This document shows, in pieces, positions 31,428 through 39,721 of a stretch of DNA of 64,000 nucleotides. The stretch covers positions 1-64,000 of the forward strand of contig NZ_AWFF01000033.1 of NCBI RefSeq assembly GCF_000682755.1, in the 5' to 3' direction. The position numbers and the translations under genes were made by a program. This DNA comes from Hyphomonas beringensis. GTDB lineage: Bacteria > Pseudomonadota > Alphaproteobacteria > Caulobacterales > Hyphomonadaceae. The stretch's first letter is position 1; the number at the start of each line of letters is the position of its first letter. The notes under the pieces were generated by a model. That model saw only the letters and a list, made by a program, of their open reading frames with translations, was not told the origin of the DNA and ran no database searches.

Positions 31428-33080
31428 TCAGGACTGTCCAGGCTGATACTTGAAGGACCATGTGACGCTGTAGATTGGGTCATCATTCAGGCTCGAAACC
31501 GGCAGCTTAAAGGGCTCTGCCATTTCCAGCCCCAACATGGCCATGTCTTTCCATTTGAAGCGCACGCCAACGCCAGCAGAGCCAAGCGTGATGTCTTGCA
31601 AGGAAGAGGCAGGGGTGTTCAGCGAGCCGCCGCCATAATCGGCAAAGACATAGATGTCGCTCTGCTTGAAGTCTCCCTTTTGCAGAGGGCGATAGCTCGG
31701 TTCGAAAATGGCGGCATAGCCCTTGTCGAAGGCGACAAGGCCGTTCCGAAACCCTCGCCCGAAGCTCGCGCCACCGATCAGCAAGCGCTCATTTGCGGGC
31801 AGCGCGTCTTCTGTCCACTGCGCAGACGCTGAGAGGTTCAAGCGGACACGCTTGCCGACAGCCTGAATTAGGCGGGATCTGACGTCTATTTTGGTGAAGT
31901 CTACCGACGCGCCGGGGGTCGAGGTTTCTGCACTATTGATATCCACTCCCTGAGACAGGGTCGCAACGCCTTGCACTGCGCGTTTCTTCGTTGTCTTGCG
32001 ACCCGTCAGACCCAGCCGCGCAGCGGTGATTTCATCATTGGTCAGGACAGAGCCGAAGGCTGCGTTCGTGCTTTGCAGATGGTCGATCCGGAAGCTTGCA
32101 GAGACTTCGCGTTTGAAGTCCAGCAGAAGGGGGTGAGAGAGACCTGCAGAGACCTGAACGGCTTCCCCCTCGATCGGGATGGCGTCAGGCCGGGTCTCTT
32201 GATAGGCGGCGGCAAGATCCAGCATTGTGCCGCGCGTGCCGACGGGACTGCGATAGCTGATTTCGGCTGAGCGTGCCTGCTGGCCATCTGTTGATATCGA
32301 CAGCCGCCCGGACAGTTGGTCCCCCTCGCGCATCAGATTGTACCCGACGCCGCCGGCGGTCAGGCGGCCGCGGTCAATCAGACGGGATTCACGATTGTCA
32401 TACCCGCCATAGAAGCGGTTCTTCTTGGGTTCGACATCCAGGATAACATTTGTTGCGCCTTGTTCCTTTGTCGTGCCGAGCCGAGGCGTCACCTTGTAAC
32501 CGGGCACACGCCGTGAGAGCGCAAGCGCCCGTTCATAGCTGGACCGCGACGCTGGCTGCTGGCCTATAACAGGCTCCATATATCCGGAGAGCAATTTGCT
32601 TTCTGTGACCTTGTCATCCTTGCGGACATAGGCGTTCTTCACATAGCCCTCGGCGATACGAATATCGACAATCCCGTCAGACAGGTCCTGACTTGGAATG
32701 GCGAGAGAGAAGAGGGCGACAGGGGAGTCCTGATAGGCTGCAGACATGGCTGCGGCGAGGGCCTTTAGAGTTTTGACGTCTGCCTGCTGTCCCAGAAAGC
32801 TCTCCGCAACGGCGGCCACGTCTTCGGGCACATCTGCGCCAATGAAGTTGATGCCGCGTATGGTCGAGGCAGTCCCCATGGGGGCTGCCACATCGGTGCG
32901 GCCACGTTGCTGAGGGGCTTCAGGCTTTGGCTCCATCTCATCAGATTCCGTTGGTGTGTAGCCGGGGTCCAATGGTCGGTTCAAATCAGTCGCGGCACCT
33001 TGCAGTGCCGCGGCCGGTTGGATGAAAAGCATCGCACTGAACAGGGCGATAGCCGATGATTTACAAGCGCGATGCTTCAT
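31428..33080 (-). CDS. TpsB/ShlB/FhaC-type outer-membrane secretion transporter
   Basis: A 550-residue outer-membrane protein with a signal peptide ending near AAALQ and a proline-rich linker. POTRA-like domains follow at about residues 70-220 (STIRGINFIGADVPED, GIVDIRIAEGYV, VPGYKVTPRLG), then a C-terminal beta-barrel with alternating aromatic and polar strands ending in WSFKYQP. The L6-type motif is FGRGF (R442), equivalent to the RGY/RGF loop of Omp85/TpsB proteins. TpsB proteins export a partner across the outer membrane. The only partner in the operon is the collagen-like lipoprotein 21 bp upstream, with no haemagglutinin-type TpsA. A ribosome-binding site (CAGGAG) precedes the ATG. Confidence 0.88.
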   Translation of the reverse strand: MKHRACKSSAIALFSAMLFIQPAAALQGAATDLNRPLDPGYTPTESDEMEPKPEAPQQRGRTDVAAPMGTASTIRGINFIGADVPEDVAAVAESFLGQQADVKTLKALAAAMSAAYQDSPVALFSLAIPSQDLSDGIVDIRIAEGYVKNAYVRKDDKVTESKLLSGYMEPVIGQQPASRSSYERALALSRRVPGYKVTPRLGTTKEQGATNVILDVEPKKNRFYGGYDNRESRLIDRGRLTAGGVGYNLMREGDQLSGRLSISTDGQQARSAEISYRSPVGTRGTMLDLAAAYQETRPDAIPIEGEAVQVSAGLSHPLLLDFKREVSASFRIDHLQSTNAAFGSVLTNDEITAARLGLTGRKTTKKRAVQGVATLSQGVDINSAETSTPGASVDFTKIDVRSRLIQAVGKRVRLNLSASAQWTEDALPANERLLIGGASFGRGFRNGLVAFDKGYAAIFEPSYRPLQKGDFKQSDIYVFADYGGGSLNTPASSLQDITLGSAGVGVRFKWKDMAMLGLEMAEPFKLPVSSLNDDPIYSVTWSFKYQPGQS

Positions 33081-33101
33081 ATTCGCGTCTCCTGACCTGG
33101 A

Positions 33102-34259
33102 TTAGCTGATGCCGCCTAAACCGGAGAGCAGGCCGCCAAGGCCTCCGCTTTCCCCGTCTTCAGTGGACTCTGTCAGGTCTCCCAACAGGCCGCCGGCGCC
33201 CTCTGTGTCCAGCAGCTCTTCGGTCGTGTCGGTAAGACTGTCTGTGGTATCACCCAGCAGGCTGCCACCTGGTTCAGAGGCAGAGACTGTTTCGAGCAGT
33301 CCGTCCGTCGTGTCTTCGAGGCCGGATACCGTGTCGGTCAGCAGGGCTTCCGTGAATTGCGGATCGCTGGCTGCCGTGATGACGTCTTCCACGGTGTTCT
33401 GGGTGTCGGACAGCAGGTTCGCGTTCAGCAGGTCTCCTTCGCCACCAACGATATCAACCGTGGCGACGCCTGCGACGTCCAAGCCTCCGTCAGTGTTCGG
33501 GGCCAGGTCAACATTGAGCAGCATGTCGTCATTCGCGACGCCCGCCTCAAGCAAGCTACCATCAGCTTGGGTATCAGACAGAACGCTGGCGCCGATCAAA
33601 GGCGTTGTATCGCCGCCGACAACATCCGAGGCGCCAATATTGGCGGCGAGAAGCGGCGAAGCGGCATCAAGTGCGCCGTCCACGAGCATCTCATTGCCGC
33701 TGCCATAACCGGTCAGGGTGTCGCCGACATTGGTTACAGTGTCGGCTGCGGCAACGACGATATTGCTGAGGGAGGAGTCTGAGCTTGCATCTGTCATGGT
33801 GGAGGCAAGCTGCTCACCCGTTCCGGAAAGCATGTCACCGGCAGCAATGGAGACAGTATCCAGGATTGGGGCGCTGGTGCCCGGATCTCCAAGATTTGCC
33901 AGAAGGCCCGTGCCGCCAATTCCGTTGTCCCCAACCAGGCCGCCCGTGGCGATCATGCCAGCTTCACCGAGATTGAAGTTGCCGTCAGTCCCGTCCATGC
34001 CGTCTAACCCATCCATCCCGTCCAGACCGGCCATGCCTTGCGGGCCTGCGGGACCAGCTGGCCCGGCCGGACCAGCCGGGCCGACCTCACCTTGCTGAGA
34101 TCCACTGCCGAGTGGGCTTTGGTCGCCAGGAGCGCGGTCGATTGTCTGCATTGTATTTCCGACACTGGCGATGCGTCGTGTCGTTGTGGATTCGCAAGCG
34201 CCCAAAACCAAAAGGGCGCCAATCGCTGCGGTTGAAACGAGAGAGTATTTCATGTTCAT
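33102..34259 (-). CDS. Collagen-like lipoprotein, probable partner of the TpsB transporter
   Basis: A 385-residue lipoprotein (lipobox LGAC, C22). A polar linker is followed by 12 uninterrupted Gly-X-Y triplets (residues 57-92), first GPA-type and then G(M/L)(D/A)-type. A long Gly/Asp/Leu/Thr-rich low-complexity region follows, with recurring VLSDTQ/LLSDTQ, VVGGD/IVGGE and LLxDT elements. The glycine- and leucine-rich tail ends GGLLSGLGGIS. The composition suggests a calcium-loving, repetitive adhesin or surface fibre. A strong GGAGGAAT ribosome-binding site supports the start; a second ATG two codons on (34253) has better spacing. It is the first gene of an operon with the TpsB-like transporter. 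No known family beyond collagen-like repeats is recognised. Confidence 0.85.
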   Translation of the reverse strand: MNMKYSLVSTAAIGALLVLGACESTTTRRIASVGNTMQTIDRAPGDQSPLGSGSQQGEVGPAGPAGPAGPAGPQGMAGLDGMDGLDGMDGTDGNFNLGEAGMIATGGLVGDNGIGGTGLLANLGDPGTSAPILDTVSIAAGDMLSGTGEQLASTMTDASSDSSLSNIVVAAADTVTNVGDTLTGYGSGNEMLVDGALDAASPLLAANIGASDVVGGDTTPLIGASVLSDTQADGSLLEAGVANDDMLLNVDLAPNTDGGLDVAGVATVDIVGGEGDLLNANLLSDTQNTVEDVITAASDPQFTEALLTDTVSGLEDTTDGLLETVSASEPGGSLLGDTTDSLTDTTEELLDTEGAGGLLGDLTESTEDGESGGLGGLLSGLGGIS

Positions 34260-34389: not shown

Positions 34390-34399
34390 GGGTTAACCC
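34390..34399. promoter_or_regulatory. GGGTTAACCC palindrome upstream of the collagen-like operon
   Basis: A perfect 10-bp palindrome in an AT-rich 166-bp gap that contains several TTAAC half-sites, about 130 bp upstream of the collagen-like gene start. A full TTAA-N7-TTAA site is not present. It is a regulatory candidate only. Confidence 0.25.
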
Positions 34400-34425
34400 G
34401 TTAATTTTCTTGTAAAGTTAAGAAA

Positions 34426-37445: not shown

Positions 37446-38009
37446 ATGCTTATCTATGCCGTGCTGGGCCTGCTGGCCATCTTCGTGATTGGCGGCGTGC
37501 TTATCTACAACAATCTCGTGAAGAAATCTCAGATGGCGGACAATGGCTGGTCTGACATCGATGTGCAATTGAAGCGGCGGGCAAATCTTATCCCGCAACT
37601 CGTCAGCACCGTCGAAGGCTATGCCTCGCACGAGCAGAAGCTGTTTGCAGAAATCGCCACGCGCCGCGCAGAGGCGATGGCCGCGGGGGATGATGTATCT
37701 GGCCGCAGCGCAGCCGAGACAGCGCTGTCTCAGCCTGTCTCCCGTCTCGTGGCCGTGGCCGAAGACTATCCCGAGCTGAAGGCAAGCGAAAATTTCCTGG
37801 AATTGCAAAGAGAGCTTTCCGATACTGAAGACAAGATCGAAATGGCCCGGCGCTTCTATAATGGCGCGGTGCGGGAGTTGAACACGTCAGTGCAGAGTTT
37901 CCCCGCCATGCTGATTGCGGGGCCAATTGGCTTCCGGCAGAGGGACTATTTCGAGGTGGATATGGCGGACCGGGCCGTGCCGCAGATTGATATGGGAGAT
38001 CAGGCGTGA
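37446..38009 (+). CDS. LemA family protein
   Basis: A 187-residue protein with an N-terminal transmembrane segment ([20 protein letters not shown]) and a helical-bundle domain. The family core is [31 protein letters not shown], ending [21 protein letters not shown]. LemA proteins are envelope-associated and of unclear function. The start at 37446 is supported by CAGGAG upstream and by the position of the membrane segment. Its stop overlaps the next gene's start by four bases, as commonly seen for lemA and DUF2207 pairs. Confidence 0.92.
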
Positions 38010-39721
38010 GTATACGGACGATCCTGCTGAGCCTTGTCTTTGCCTGCTTTGCGCTGGCCGCAGTTGCGGAAGAGAAGATCAACAGTTTTGACGTTGCCAT
38101 AACCGTTCAGGAAGACGGCGATATCGACGTGTCCGAGCGGTTGAATGTCACCTCCGAAGGATATGAAATTCGCCGCGGTATCTTCCGGGACCTGCCGCGC
38201 TATTATGCCGACGACCAGCATGAAGGCGACAAGCTGCCTTATCAGTACAAGGTCACAAGGGTGACCCGGAATGGGAACAGTGAGCCCTACGAGATTCTCA
38301 AGGAAGGCAATGCCTATCAGATACGCATAGGCAATGCTGACAGGTATCTTGAGAATGGAGAGCATGTCTATGAAATCGAATATGAGGTGAAGAACCAAAT
38401 CCGCTATTTCGAGGATCATGATGAACTCTATTGGAATGTCACCGGAAATTACTGGCTGTTCCCGATTGAAAAGGCCTCTGTACGGGTAACCCTTCCTGAA
38501 GATGCGGTGCTGCTGGACAAATCTGCCTATACAGGCGGCTATGGGGCAGATGGCCGTGACTATGCCTTCCGCCAGAGTGGCGGGGCTTATGTTTTTGAAA
38601 CCACGCGCCCCCTGGGTTTGAGAGAGGGGCTGACGGTCTCCCTCCGTATCGAGAAGGGCGCGATTGCGCCGCCCTCCCTGTCTGACAAGGGCACATTGTT
38701 CTGGTTCCGCTATGGCGCGTTGGGCATTCTGGTCCTGTCGTTTCTGGGTGTCCTCGGCTTCCTGTTGGCAAGCTTTCGTAAAGTGGGGGAGGATCCGCCA
38801 AAGGGCCCTGTCTTCGCGCAGTATGAGCCGCCAGCCGGTTATTCACCGGCGGCCGTTCATCACATCTATTACAGAGGCTTCCGGGGGCATGGCTCTCTGA
38901 TTTCCGCGCTGCTGCACATGGCGACCGGTGGCTTTGTCGATATTGATGCTTCGGATAAGAAAAACACGTTGCTGAACCGGACACTCGAGACGAATGTCGC
39001 GACGTTGAGCGATGATGAGAAAATCCTGGAGCACGGATTGTTTTCTGATCGATCCAGACTGATGCTCGGCACGGCCTATGATTCCGATTTCACCAAGGCG
39101 TACACCGCCTTTCGGAAATATATTTCCCGAAAGTATGGAGACCCGTACTTCAAGTGGAACATAGGCTATACACTTGTTGCCCTGATCCTGACCGTTGCGG
39201 TGATTGTCGTATCGGCCTTGCTGACGGTGAACTGGACCTGGTGGCATAGCCTGGTCGTATTGGCCTTTGCTGTCTTGAATGGTGTCTTCATGTATCTGAT
39301 GCCGGCGCCGACGAAAAAGGGCCAGAAAATCCGAACCGATATTGAAGGGTTCCGGTTATATCTGGAGACAGCAGAGAAGCTGCAACTGAATGCGGCAGAG
39401 GTGGGCAGTGAGACGCCGCCGCCCATGAGCAAGGATCGCTATGAGAAATTCCTGCCCTATGCGATCGCGCTGGGCGTGGAAAAGCCGTGGACGAAGTATT
39501 TCGAAAAGACCCTGCCGAGTGAGGCCGCGGACTATTCCCCCGCCTGGGGGCATTTCGGCGGGCACTCTCTGGGCAATCTCAGCAGCATGACCGACAGCAT
39601 GGTGTCCACCATGAATTCCGGTGTCAGCGCCTCTCTGCCGCAAAGCTCCAGCTCCTCCGGGGGAGGGGGCGGCGGCTTCTCTGGTGGAGGCGGCGGTGGA
39701 GGCGGCGGCGGTGGCTGGTAG
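38006..39721 (+). CDS. DUF2207 membrane protein
   Basis: A 571-residue protein with a signal peptide (LAAVAEE), a long extracytoplasmic DUF2207 domain ([22 protein letters not shown]) and membrane segments at about residues 230-250 and 390-435. A cytoplasmic domain follows, ending in a glycine-serine tail. The tail ([18 protein letters not shown] and onward to GW) is the low-complexity end typical of this family. It is translationally coupled to lemA, and the pair is likely to form one envelope complex. Activity is unknown. Confidence 0.9.

What the first reader, a model, noticed from the sequence alone, without database searches (positions are those of the whole stretch)
31428..34259. Collagen-like lipoprotein plus TpsB/FhaC-type transporter: two-partner secretion without a classical TpsA
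Seen: a lipoprotein with 12 Gly-X-Y triplets and a long Gly/Asp repeat region is the first gene of an operon, and 21 bp later comes a POTRA plus beta-barrel protein with the RGF loop motif. Known: TpsB proteins export large beta-helical TpsA partners, which are not found here. Inference: the collagen-like lipoprotein is the substrate or surface-tethered partner, a route for making collagen-like surface fibres in a Gram-negative bacterium. The AT-rich 5' flank with TTAAC elements suggests regulated expression.
Basis: partly seen in the sequence, partly recalled or inferred. Interest (0 to 1): 0.7.

Follow-up and report, generated by a model that had tools for sequence, protein, structure and literature searches.

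The report
Lipoprotein paired with a TpsB transporter
A marine bacterium carries a small lipid-anchored protein with a short collagen-like stalk directly next to an outer-membrane export channel, and the two stay together in many relatives that mostly lack the channel's usual cargo, so the small protein is probably what the channel puts on the cell surface.

Summary
Among 41 genomes, all 7 with a full-length orthologue of this TpsB carry the lipoprotein directly upstream. A canonical TpsA (TPS domain, PF05860) is absent from 16 of 18 pair-carrying genomes; in the other two it has, or probably has, another TpsB beside it. In trees of TpsBs gathered here, 24 of 26 members of an alphaproteobacterial clade and 7 of 7 of a second clade have a collagen-like, glycine-rich or similar low-complexity partner, mostly with a visible lipobox. 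Six of those seven are Collagen_mid (PF15984) proteins, proposed as adhesins in Burkholderia, where BCAL1524 affects auto-aggregation. The collagen stretch is short (13 triplets), variable and replaceable, so "collagen fibres" is not supported; the post-linker region is the more constant part. Best reading: a branch of two-partner secretion whose TpsB displays a lipoprotein without TPS domain. Secretion is untested, and some such lipoproteins lack a nearby TpsB. Side finding: six of eight sphingomonad TpsB loci read have a 2OG-Fe(II) oxygenase after TpsB, five of them with a collagen-like lipoprotein further on.

The parts
33102..34259 (-). collagen-like lipoprotein gene, 385 aa (the start may be the second ATG, residue 3)
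   Evidence: ORF and lipobox LGAC|ES; found beside all 7 full-length TpsB orthologues
34194..34259 (-). signal peptide and lipobox, Cys22
   Evidence: by pattern; A21, C22 and S24 invariant in 15 aligned proteins
33975..34091 (-). 13 G-x-y triplets, residues 57-95; variable stalk/linker
   Evidence: 0 of 20,000 shuffles; 6 to 20 triplets in 15 aligned proteins
33882..33968 (-). most conserved block, residues 98-126; candidate recognition element (inference)
   Evidence: alignments A2 and A5
33105..33881 (-). acidic post-linker domain and C-terminus
   Evidence: alignment A5; profile similarity to seven partners from other families, 97.6% probability over 81 columns
33081..33101 (-). 21-bp gap with AGGAGA upstream of the TpsB start
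   Evidence: read by eye
31428..33080 (-). TpsB/FhaC-type outer-membrane transporter, 550 aa
   Evidence: Pfam ShlB, POTRA_2, Omp85; fold nearest CdiB/FhaC
32646..32864 (-). POTRA_2 domain, residues 73-145; a second POTRA-like fold follows (about 146-218)
31560..32459 (-). ShlB barrel match, residues 208-507; 16 strands (222-545) in the model by my count
31749..31757 (-). RGF loop motif, residues 442-444
   Evidence: invariant in 7 Hyphomonas; RAF in the relatives read
34393..34421 (-). three TTAAC elements upstream
   Evidence: set kept in 2 of 9 relatives compared, the two closest

Best explanation
The two genes form a lipoprotein branch of two-partner secretion. The first gene makes a lipoprotein: a lipid anchor, a flexible or collagen-like linker, a conserved block and an acidic post-linker domain. 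The second makes its own TpsB. After lipidation and sorting to the outer membrane, the post-linker part is threaded through the TpsB barrel, probably recognised by the POTRA domains through the conserved block, and stays on the surface tethered by its lipid, as an adhesive or aggregating coat. Shown: gene pair, TpsB fold (predicted), conserved linkage across families, absence of TPS-domain proteins from most pair genomes, related transporters tied to one kind of partner. Inferred: export, topology, recognition element, adhesive role. Not supported: long collagen fibres.
For: (1) 7 of 7 full-length TpsB orthologues among 41 genomes have the lipoprotein directly upstream. In 249 genomes of the order, 16 of the 17 best TpsB places (E below 1e-60) have such a partner upstream, one of them frameshifted-looking (G923); the 17th sits at a contig edge. 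(2) All six loci found from the lipoprotein side in named genomes have the TpsB next to it. (3) PF05860 is absent from 16 of 18 pair genomes; in G970 the TPS domain lies just after a second TpsB; in G000 it lies near the end of contig C98, while another TpsB on C70 follows the end of a similar large repeat protein (contig-end inference). (4) Trees: 24 of 26 TpsBs of one clade (support 99) and 7 of 7 of another (support 100) have such a partner in the locus; in a composition screen of 75 loci it marked 30 of 31 partner loci and 6 of 44 others, none of these six a lipoprotein of this kind by eye. (5) In G814 only the last 70 codons of TpsB remain and no lipoprotein lies within 1.5 kb. (6) TpsB model nearest to CdiB and FhaC. 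(7) Literature: Burkholderia Collagen_mid lipoproteins BCAL1524/1523 lie next to the 1,686-bp outer-membrane gene bcal1522 (PMC10224339, sections 9, 10, 16 read); BCAL1524 was found in outer-membrane vesicles and its deletion lowers auto-aggregation (PMC10303873, passages read).
Against: No experiment shows export by TpsB. Canonical TPS reads its substrate N-end first through a TPS domain (recalled); here the N-end is lipidated and there is no TPS domain, so the mechanism would have to differ. Two members of the TpsB clade do not fit: L141 has a 121-residue exported protein without lipobox upstream, and L146 shows no such partner in the 4 kb read. In five sphingomonad loci the lipoprotein is 0.9 to 3.7 kb downstream, not adjacent. 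Some Collagen_mid lipoproteins have no TpsB nearby: the second copy in G567 (1.5 kb read), Cupriavidus CH34 (+ strand ORFs of 230 aa or more only), and three of the five in B. cenocepacia by the paper's Table 1. An accessory lipoprotein that helps a TPS system without being cargo is known (BcpO). G000, G791, G847, G869 and G970 have further TpsBs. The lipoprotein model is uninformative (pLDDT 31.8). That BCAL1522 is a TpsB was not tested on its sequence, and vesicle localisation does not prove surface exposure.
Confidence: 0.6

Rival explanations
1. The lipoprotein is not exported freely but sits in or on the TpsB barrel as a stable plug or part of a display complex, in the way RcsF sits in BamA; the pair is a two-part outer-membrane structure.
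For: Same gene linkage and one case of joint loss; BamA-RcsF (6t1w) is a solved complex in the same superfamily (listed).
Against: Collagen_mid lipoproteins without a nearby TpsB exist. Linkers and C-ends vary in length and sequence, unlike a fitted plug.
Confidence: 0.17
2. The lipoprotein is a periplasmic accessory or chaperone for TpsB, which exports another, unlinked and unrecognised substrate.
For: BcpO, in some species a predicted periplasmic lipoprotein, is needed for the function of the TpsA BcpA (PMC5422565, passage seen).
Against: 16 of 18 pair genomes have no PF05860 protein. The low-complexity, acidic, variable body looks like a surface protein rather than a chaperone (judgement). 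A Burkholderia relative in kind has an aggregation phenotype (PMC10303873, passages).
Confidence: 0.13
3. The linkage is incidental: two envelope genes kept together with no functional interaction.
For: In the six named or MAG Hyphomonas loci the pair lies upstream of the same thiolase gene, so adjacency within the genus is partly simple inheritance. L146 and L141 lack the usual partner.
Against: The linkage persists across several families, two TpsB clades and plasmids, in different surroundings and gene orders.
Confidence: 0.05
4. The TpsB serves a divergent TpsA that PF05860 misses.
For: A single model was used, and some genomes are drafts.
Against: The same search finds TPS domains in 5 of 41 genomes of the same set, with E-values of 1e-29 to 1e-41.
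Confidence: 0.05

Closest known systems
Two-partner secretion (type Vb): FhaB/FhaC, CdiA/CdiB
   Same: TpsB with POTRA_2, ShlB barrel and RGF loop motif; predicted fold nearest CdiB and FhaC; partner gene adjacent
   Different: Partner is a small lipoprotein without a TPS domain; no sign of a beta-helix, though its structure could not be predicted
Burkholderia Collagen_mid lipoproteins (Bcc-CLPs, PF15984; BCAL1523/BCAL1524)
   Different: No PF15984 match in the window protein, no significant profile similarity (25.9% probability over 25 columns); the paper sections I read do not discuss a TpsB
Slam / type XI surface lipoprotein export
   Same: A dedicated outer-membrane barrel that exposes lipoproteins
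   Different: Slam has TPR repeats and a 14-strand barrel (recalled); here POTRA domains and a TpsB barrel
Bacterial collagen-like adhesins Scl1/Scl2, Lcl, Bucl8
   Same: Protein with G-x-y triplets; weak NCBIfam similarity to Lcl, SclB and SclA, far below cut-off
   Different: Only 13 triplets; anchored by lipid; paired with TpsB; triplets are replaceable in related partners

Membership tests
TpsB/FhaC transporter | POTRA_2 domain and ShlB-type barrel | tested here: met
   PF08479 2.7e-7, PF03865 7.4e-23, both above cut-off
TpsB/FhaC transporter | two POTRAs and 16-strand barrel | tested here: met
   AlphaFold model, mean pLDDT 67.4, strands counted by me; Foldseek top five 6wim, 4ql0, 6wil, 4qky, 3njt
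TpsB/FhaC transporter | RG[FYW] motif in loop 6 (recalled) | tested here: met
   RGF 442-444, invariant in 7 Hyphomonas; RAF in other families of the clade
Two-partner secretion system (type Vb) | TpsA partner with N-terminal TPS domain (PF05860) | tested here: not met
   no PF05860 in the partner; absent from 16 of 18 pair genomes
Two-partner secretion system (type Vb) | partner genes adjacent | tested here: met
Two-partner secretion system (type Vb) | TpsB-dependent secretion of the partner | not testable with these tools
   needs a deletion and a surface assay
Bacterial collagen-like protein | uninterrupted G-x-y run well above chance | tested here: met
   13 triplets, 0 of 20,000 shuffles
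Bacterial collagen-like protein | Pfam Collagen (PF01391) above gathering cut-off | tested here: not met
   11.9 bits against 27.2
Bacterial collagen-like protein | triple helix formed | not testable with these tools
   needs circular dichroism and melting
Collagen_mid lipoproteins (PF15984) | PF15984 match | tested here: not met
   not among matches to E 1; hhalign 25.9% over 25 columns
Slam (type XI) | TPR domain plus Slam barrel | tested here: not met
   only ShlB, POTRA_2 and Omp85 found to E 1; fold is TpsB
Outer-membrane lipoprotein | lipobox with Cys after signal peptide | tested here: met
   LGAC at residue 22 by pattern; A-C invariant in 15 aligned proteins, though L098 and L099 have Pro at -2, which is unusual; no lipoprotein predictor was available

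The most novel reading that the evidence does not exclude
A widespread, so far unnamed lipoprotein-exporting branch of type Vb secretion: TpsB transporters that have traded the TPS-domain TpsA for a small lipoprotein with an exchangeable linker (collagen, polyglycine, Pro-rich). In some sphingomonads the system includes a 2OG-Fe(II) oxygenase that may hydroxylate the collagen-like stalk, which would be a bacterial collagen hydroxylated and displayed by a TpsB.
Probability: 0.45. Interest if true: 0.78.

Novelty: new variant of a known kind. Interest (0 to 1): 0.58.

Why it matters
Few routes are known by which lipoproteins reach the outside of Gram-negative cells, and what TpsBs without a TpsA do is open. 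If this branch is real, it gives a dedicated two-gene route for surface lipoproteins, a testable link between a TpsB and the Collagen_mid adhesin candidates of Burkholderia and relatives, and it suggests that recognition by a TpsB need not require a TPS domain.

Tried and rejected
Collagen as the defining feature: rejected, because related TpsBs pair with lipoproteins whose linker is polyglycine (L105, L119) or Pro/Asn-rich (L103).

A TpsA elsewhere as the real partner: tested with PF05860 in 41 and 11 genomes; none in 16 of 18 pair genomes.

Searching with the whole lipoprotein profile gave matches in 33 of 385 genomes, apart from the window's own within model positions 16-140, that is around the triplets, so it was dropped. 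The post-linker profile from seven Hyphomonas rows (A3) found only the window's own gene in 398 phylum genomes: too narrow, since other families surfaced from the TpsB side. A plasmid search with the lipoprotein gave no match, although L119 is a related partner on a plasmid, so that search was too weak to count.

Homology of the window lipoprotein to Collagen_mid: not supported (25.9% probability, E 7e-4 over 25 columns). Similarity to partners from other families: 97.6%, E 2.7e-12 over 81 columns; low-complexity columns may inflate it.

Structure of the lipoprotein: pLDDT 31.8, not used. PDB sequence search with the TpsB profile gave CdiB 6wim over 64 positions and two repeat proteins (Ika8, Ika4) that I take for spurious. 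Promoter scan: nothing. One or two origins of the partner-linked TpsBs: undecided (AU p 0.575 for 31 rows together; quick trees only).

Rows left out and then put back: the first tree (75 rows) lacked L141 and L146, which I had fetched. With them (77 rows) the clade becomes 24 of 26 instead of 24 of 24; both are reported here. Of 116 plasmid records with a TpsB match I fetched nine (H1-H6, H15, H21, H25). L102 (contig edge) and L115 (remnant) were not put in the tree. For L095, L097, L098 and L101 I aligned from a later start codon than the longest frame.

Papers: 10 searches. None of those aimed at the link listed, in what I saw, a paper that joins a collagen-like or Collagen_mid lipoprotein to a TpsB; one search listed 25 of its 80 papers. 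Searches (locus tags; Hyphomonas with collagen) added the Burkholderia papers or nothing. The library lacks most subscription papers. Eight papers were opened, by passages or named sections only; none was read whole.
Full report
What is there. On the minus strand a 385-residue lipoprotein (34259-33102) is followed after 21 bp by a 550-residue TpsB (33080-31428). The lipoprotein has a lipobox at Cys22, 13 G-x-y triplets at residues 57-95, a conserved block at 98-126 and an acidic Gly/Asp/Leu/Thr-rich remainder. The triplet run is far above chance (0 of 20,000 shuffles, maximum 9). The TpsB matches ShlB and POTRA_2 above their cut-offs; its model (mean pLDDT 67.4) has two POTRA folds and 16 barrel strands by my count and is nearest to CdiB and FhaC.

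Is the pair conserved? In 41 genomes (own plus 40 relatives) 12 had some TpsB match; 7 had a full-length orthologue, and all 7 carry the lipoprotein directly upstream. The pair is patchy: most of the 25 genomes of the genus in that sample lack it. Starting from the lipoprotein side in named genomes, all 6 loci found have the TpsB. In 249 genomes of the order, 61 had a TpsB match; of the 17 best places (E below 1e-60), 16 have a partner of this kind upstream and one is at a contig edge. These include two other genera of the family (L097, L104) and three further families. In one of those (f5: L098-L101) the partners are collagen-like. In L103, L105 and the Sphingobium plasmid gene beside L119's TpsB the linker is Pro/Asn-rich or polyglycine instead. 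The L104/L124 gene looks frameshifted, so its partner is less clean. In G814 only the last 70 codons of TpsB remain and no lipoprotein lies within 1.5 kb. The six named or MAG loci share the same downstream thiolase, so within the genus the adjacency is partly plain inheritance.

No classical TpsA. PF05860 was found in 5 of 41 genomes; of the 7 pair carriers only the window's genome has one. Of 11 further pair genomes, 1 has one. So 16 of 18 lack it. In G970 it lies just after a second TpsB. In the window's genome the TPS domain lies in a gene near the end of contig C98, with further open frame of the same repeat type up to the contig end, and a TpsB on contig C70 follows the end of a large protein with similar repeats; I infer, without joining them, that these belong together. 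One HMM was used, and drafts can miss genes.

One kind of partner for related transporters. The TpsBs gathered here were put in quick maximum-likelihood trees (75 rows; 77 rows after adding two that I had fetched but left out). In the larger tree an alphaproteobacterial clade has 26 rows (support 99) and a second clade 7 rows (support 100). In the locus, 24 of the 26 and 7 of the 7 have a collagen-like, glycine-rich or (L103) Pro/Asn-rich low-complexity partner. The two exceptions are L141, whose upstream neighbour is a 121-residue exported protein without lipobox, and L146, with no such partner in the 4 kb read; L141 sits on a long branch. A lipobox is visible by pattern in the full-length partners I read, with an unusual Pro at -2 in L098 and L099; L074 was seen without its N-end. 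A crude composition screen marked 30 of the 31 partner loci (it missed L103) and 6 of the 44 others; by eye those six are TpsA pieces, other secreted proteins or, in L112, a frame I take for spurious. The rows were picked through similarity to the window's TpsB and most flanks are only 1.5 kb, so this is a pattern, not a census. One common origin of the 31 is not rejected (AU p 0.575).

Relation to known families. Six of its seven partners match Collagen_mid, PF15984 (L120, L122, L123, L130, L139 and the partial L074); L121 does not. In 249 phylum genomes PF15984 gave 5 hits above cut-off in 4 genomes, plus 4 below it; 4 of the 5 lie next to a TpsB, the fifth does not within 1.5 kb. Burkholderia members are described as putative adhesins (PMC10224339: abstract and sections 9, 10, 16 read). 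Its Table 1 puts bcal1524 and bcal1523 next to bcal1522, a 1,686-bp outer-membrane gene called 'heme utilization-related', a size and label that would fit a TpsB; the sequence was not tested here, and the sections read do not mention two-partner secretion. The other three of its five lipoproteins have no such neighbour. BCAL1524 was reported in outer-membrane vesicles, and its deletion raised residual OD from 11.9% to 17.7% in an auto-aggregation assay (PMC10303873, passages read). The window lipoprotein itself does not match PF15984 and is not demonstrably homologous to it; it shows profile similarity to partners from other alphaproteobacterial families.

How it may work. The shared anatomy is lipid anchor, exchangeable linker (58-97 residues from the Cys to the conserved block in 15 aligned proteins), conserved block, acidic body, and a dedicated TpsB. 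The simplest reading is that TpsB moves the body to the surface while the lipid stays in the membrane, with the linker spanning or spacing. The collagen triplets would then be one of several linker solutions; 13 triplets make a rod of about 11 nm (0.29 nm per residue, recalled), not a fibre. The recognition element would most likely be the conserved block, since there is no TPS domain. All of this paragraph is inference apart from the cited length.

Against. No secretion data exist; an N-terminal lipid sits badly with N-first TPS translocation (recalled); lipoproteins of the Collagen_mid kind exist without a TpsB nearby; an accessory lipoprotein is known in TPS; two clade members lack the usual partner; and gene linkage alone cannot tell cargo from plug or helper.

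Side finding. Of eight sphingomonad plasmid TpsB loci fetched, six (L140, L142-L146) have a 186-residue 2OG-Fe(II) oxygenase just after TpsB (PF13640 in all six; 67-77% identical to that of L140); L119 and L141 do not. In five of the six a GPT/GPG collagen-like lipoprotein lies 0.9 to 3.7 kb after TpsB; in L146 none was seen. All six TpsBs fall together in one branch of the window's clade.

Verdict. Observation confirmed; interpretation partly supported; a new variant of two-partner secretion is likely but untested.

Noticed in passing
L140 3692-7782; L142 4941-11593; L143 3689-7734; L144 3725-9314; L145 3671-7888; L146 3797-6188: TpsB followed by a 186-aa 2OG-Fe(II) oxygenase in six Sphingobium/Novosphingobium plasmids, with a GPT/GPG collagen-like lipoprotein further on in five of them: a candidate collagen hydroxylase cassette.
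   Followed up: partly
L115 (G814) 1453-1713: Remnant of TpsB (last 70 codons) at a locus where no lipoprotein lies within 1.5 kb.
   Followed up: partly
G000 contigs C98 (end) and C70 (start), loci L126 and L127: A large TPS-domain protein with repeats near the end of C98; a TpsB on C70 follows the end of a similar protein: probably the genome's classical TPS pair, split by assembly.
   Followed up: partly
L124 933-2165 and L104 766-1119: Partner gene in G923 looks frameshifted (reading continues in other frames); left as found.
   Followed up: no
L141 3473-3838: A 121-aa exported protein without lipobox or Pfam match lies just upstream of a TpsB in Sphingobium sp. V4, with a short LLG...GISILSN stretch that resembles the partners' repeats: perhaps a partner without lipid anchor.
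   Followed up: partly
L106 2-1150 and other TpsB loci L107-L111, L113-L118: Other TpsBs of the order show no lipoprotein of this kind in the 1.5 kb flanks; in L106 a FecR-like gene (by eye) lies divergently upstream.
   Followed up: no
window 34390-34399: Palindrome GGGTTAACCC among the TTAAC elements upstream of the lipoprotein gene; found also in L002, altered in L003.
   Followed up: partly
window 38006-39721: Membrane protein (DUF2207-like by eye, no search run) ending in a long Gly-rich tail.
   Followed up: no
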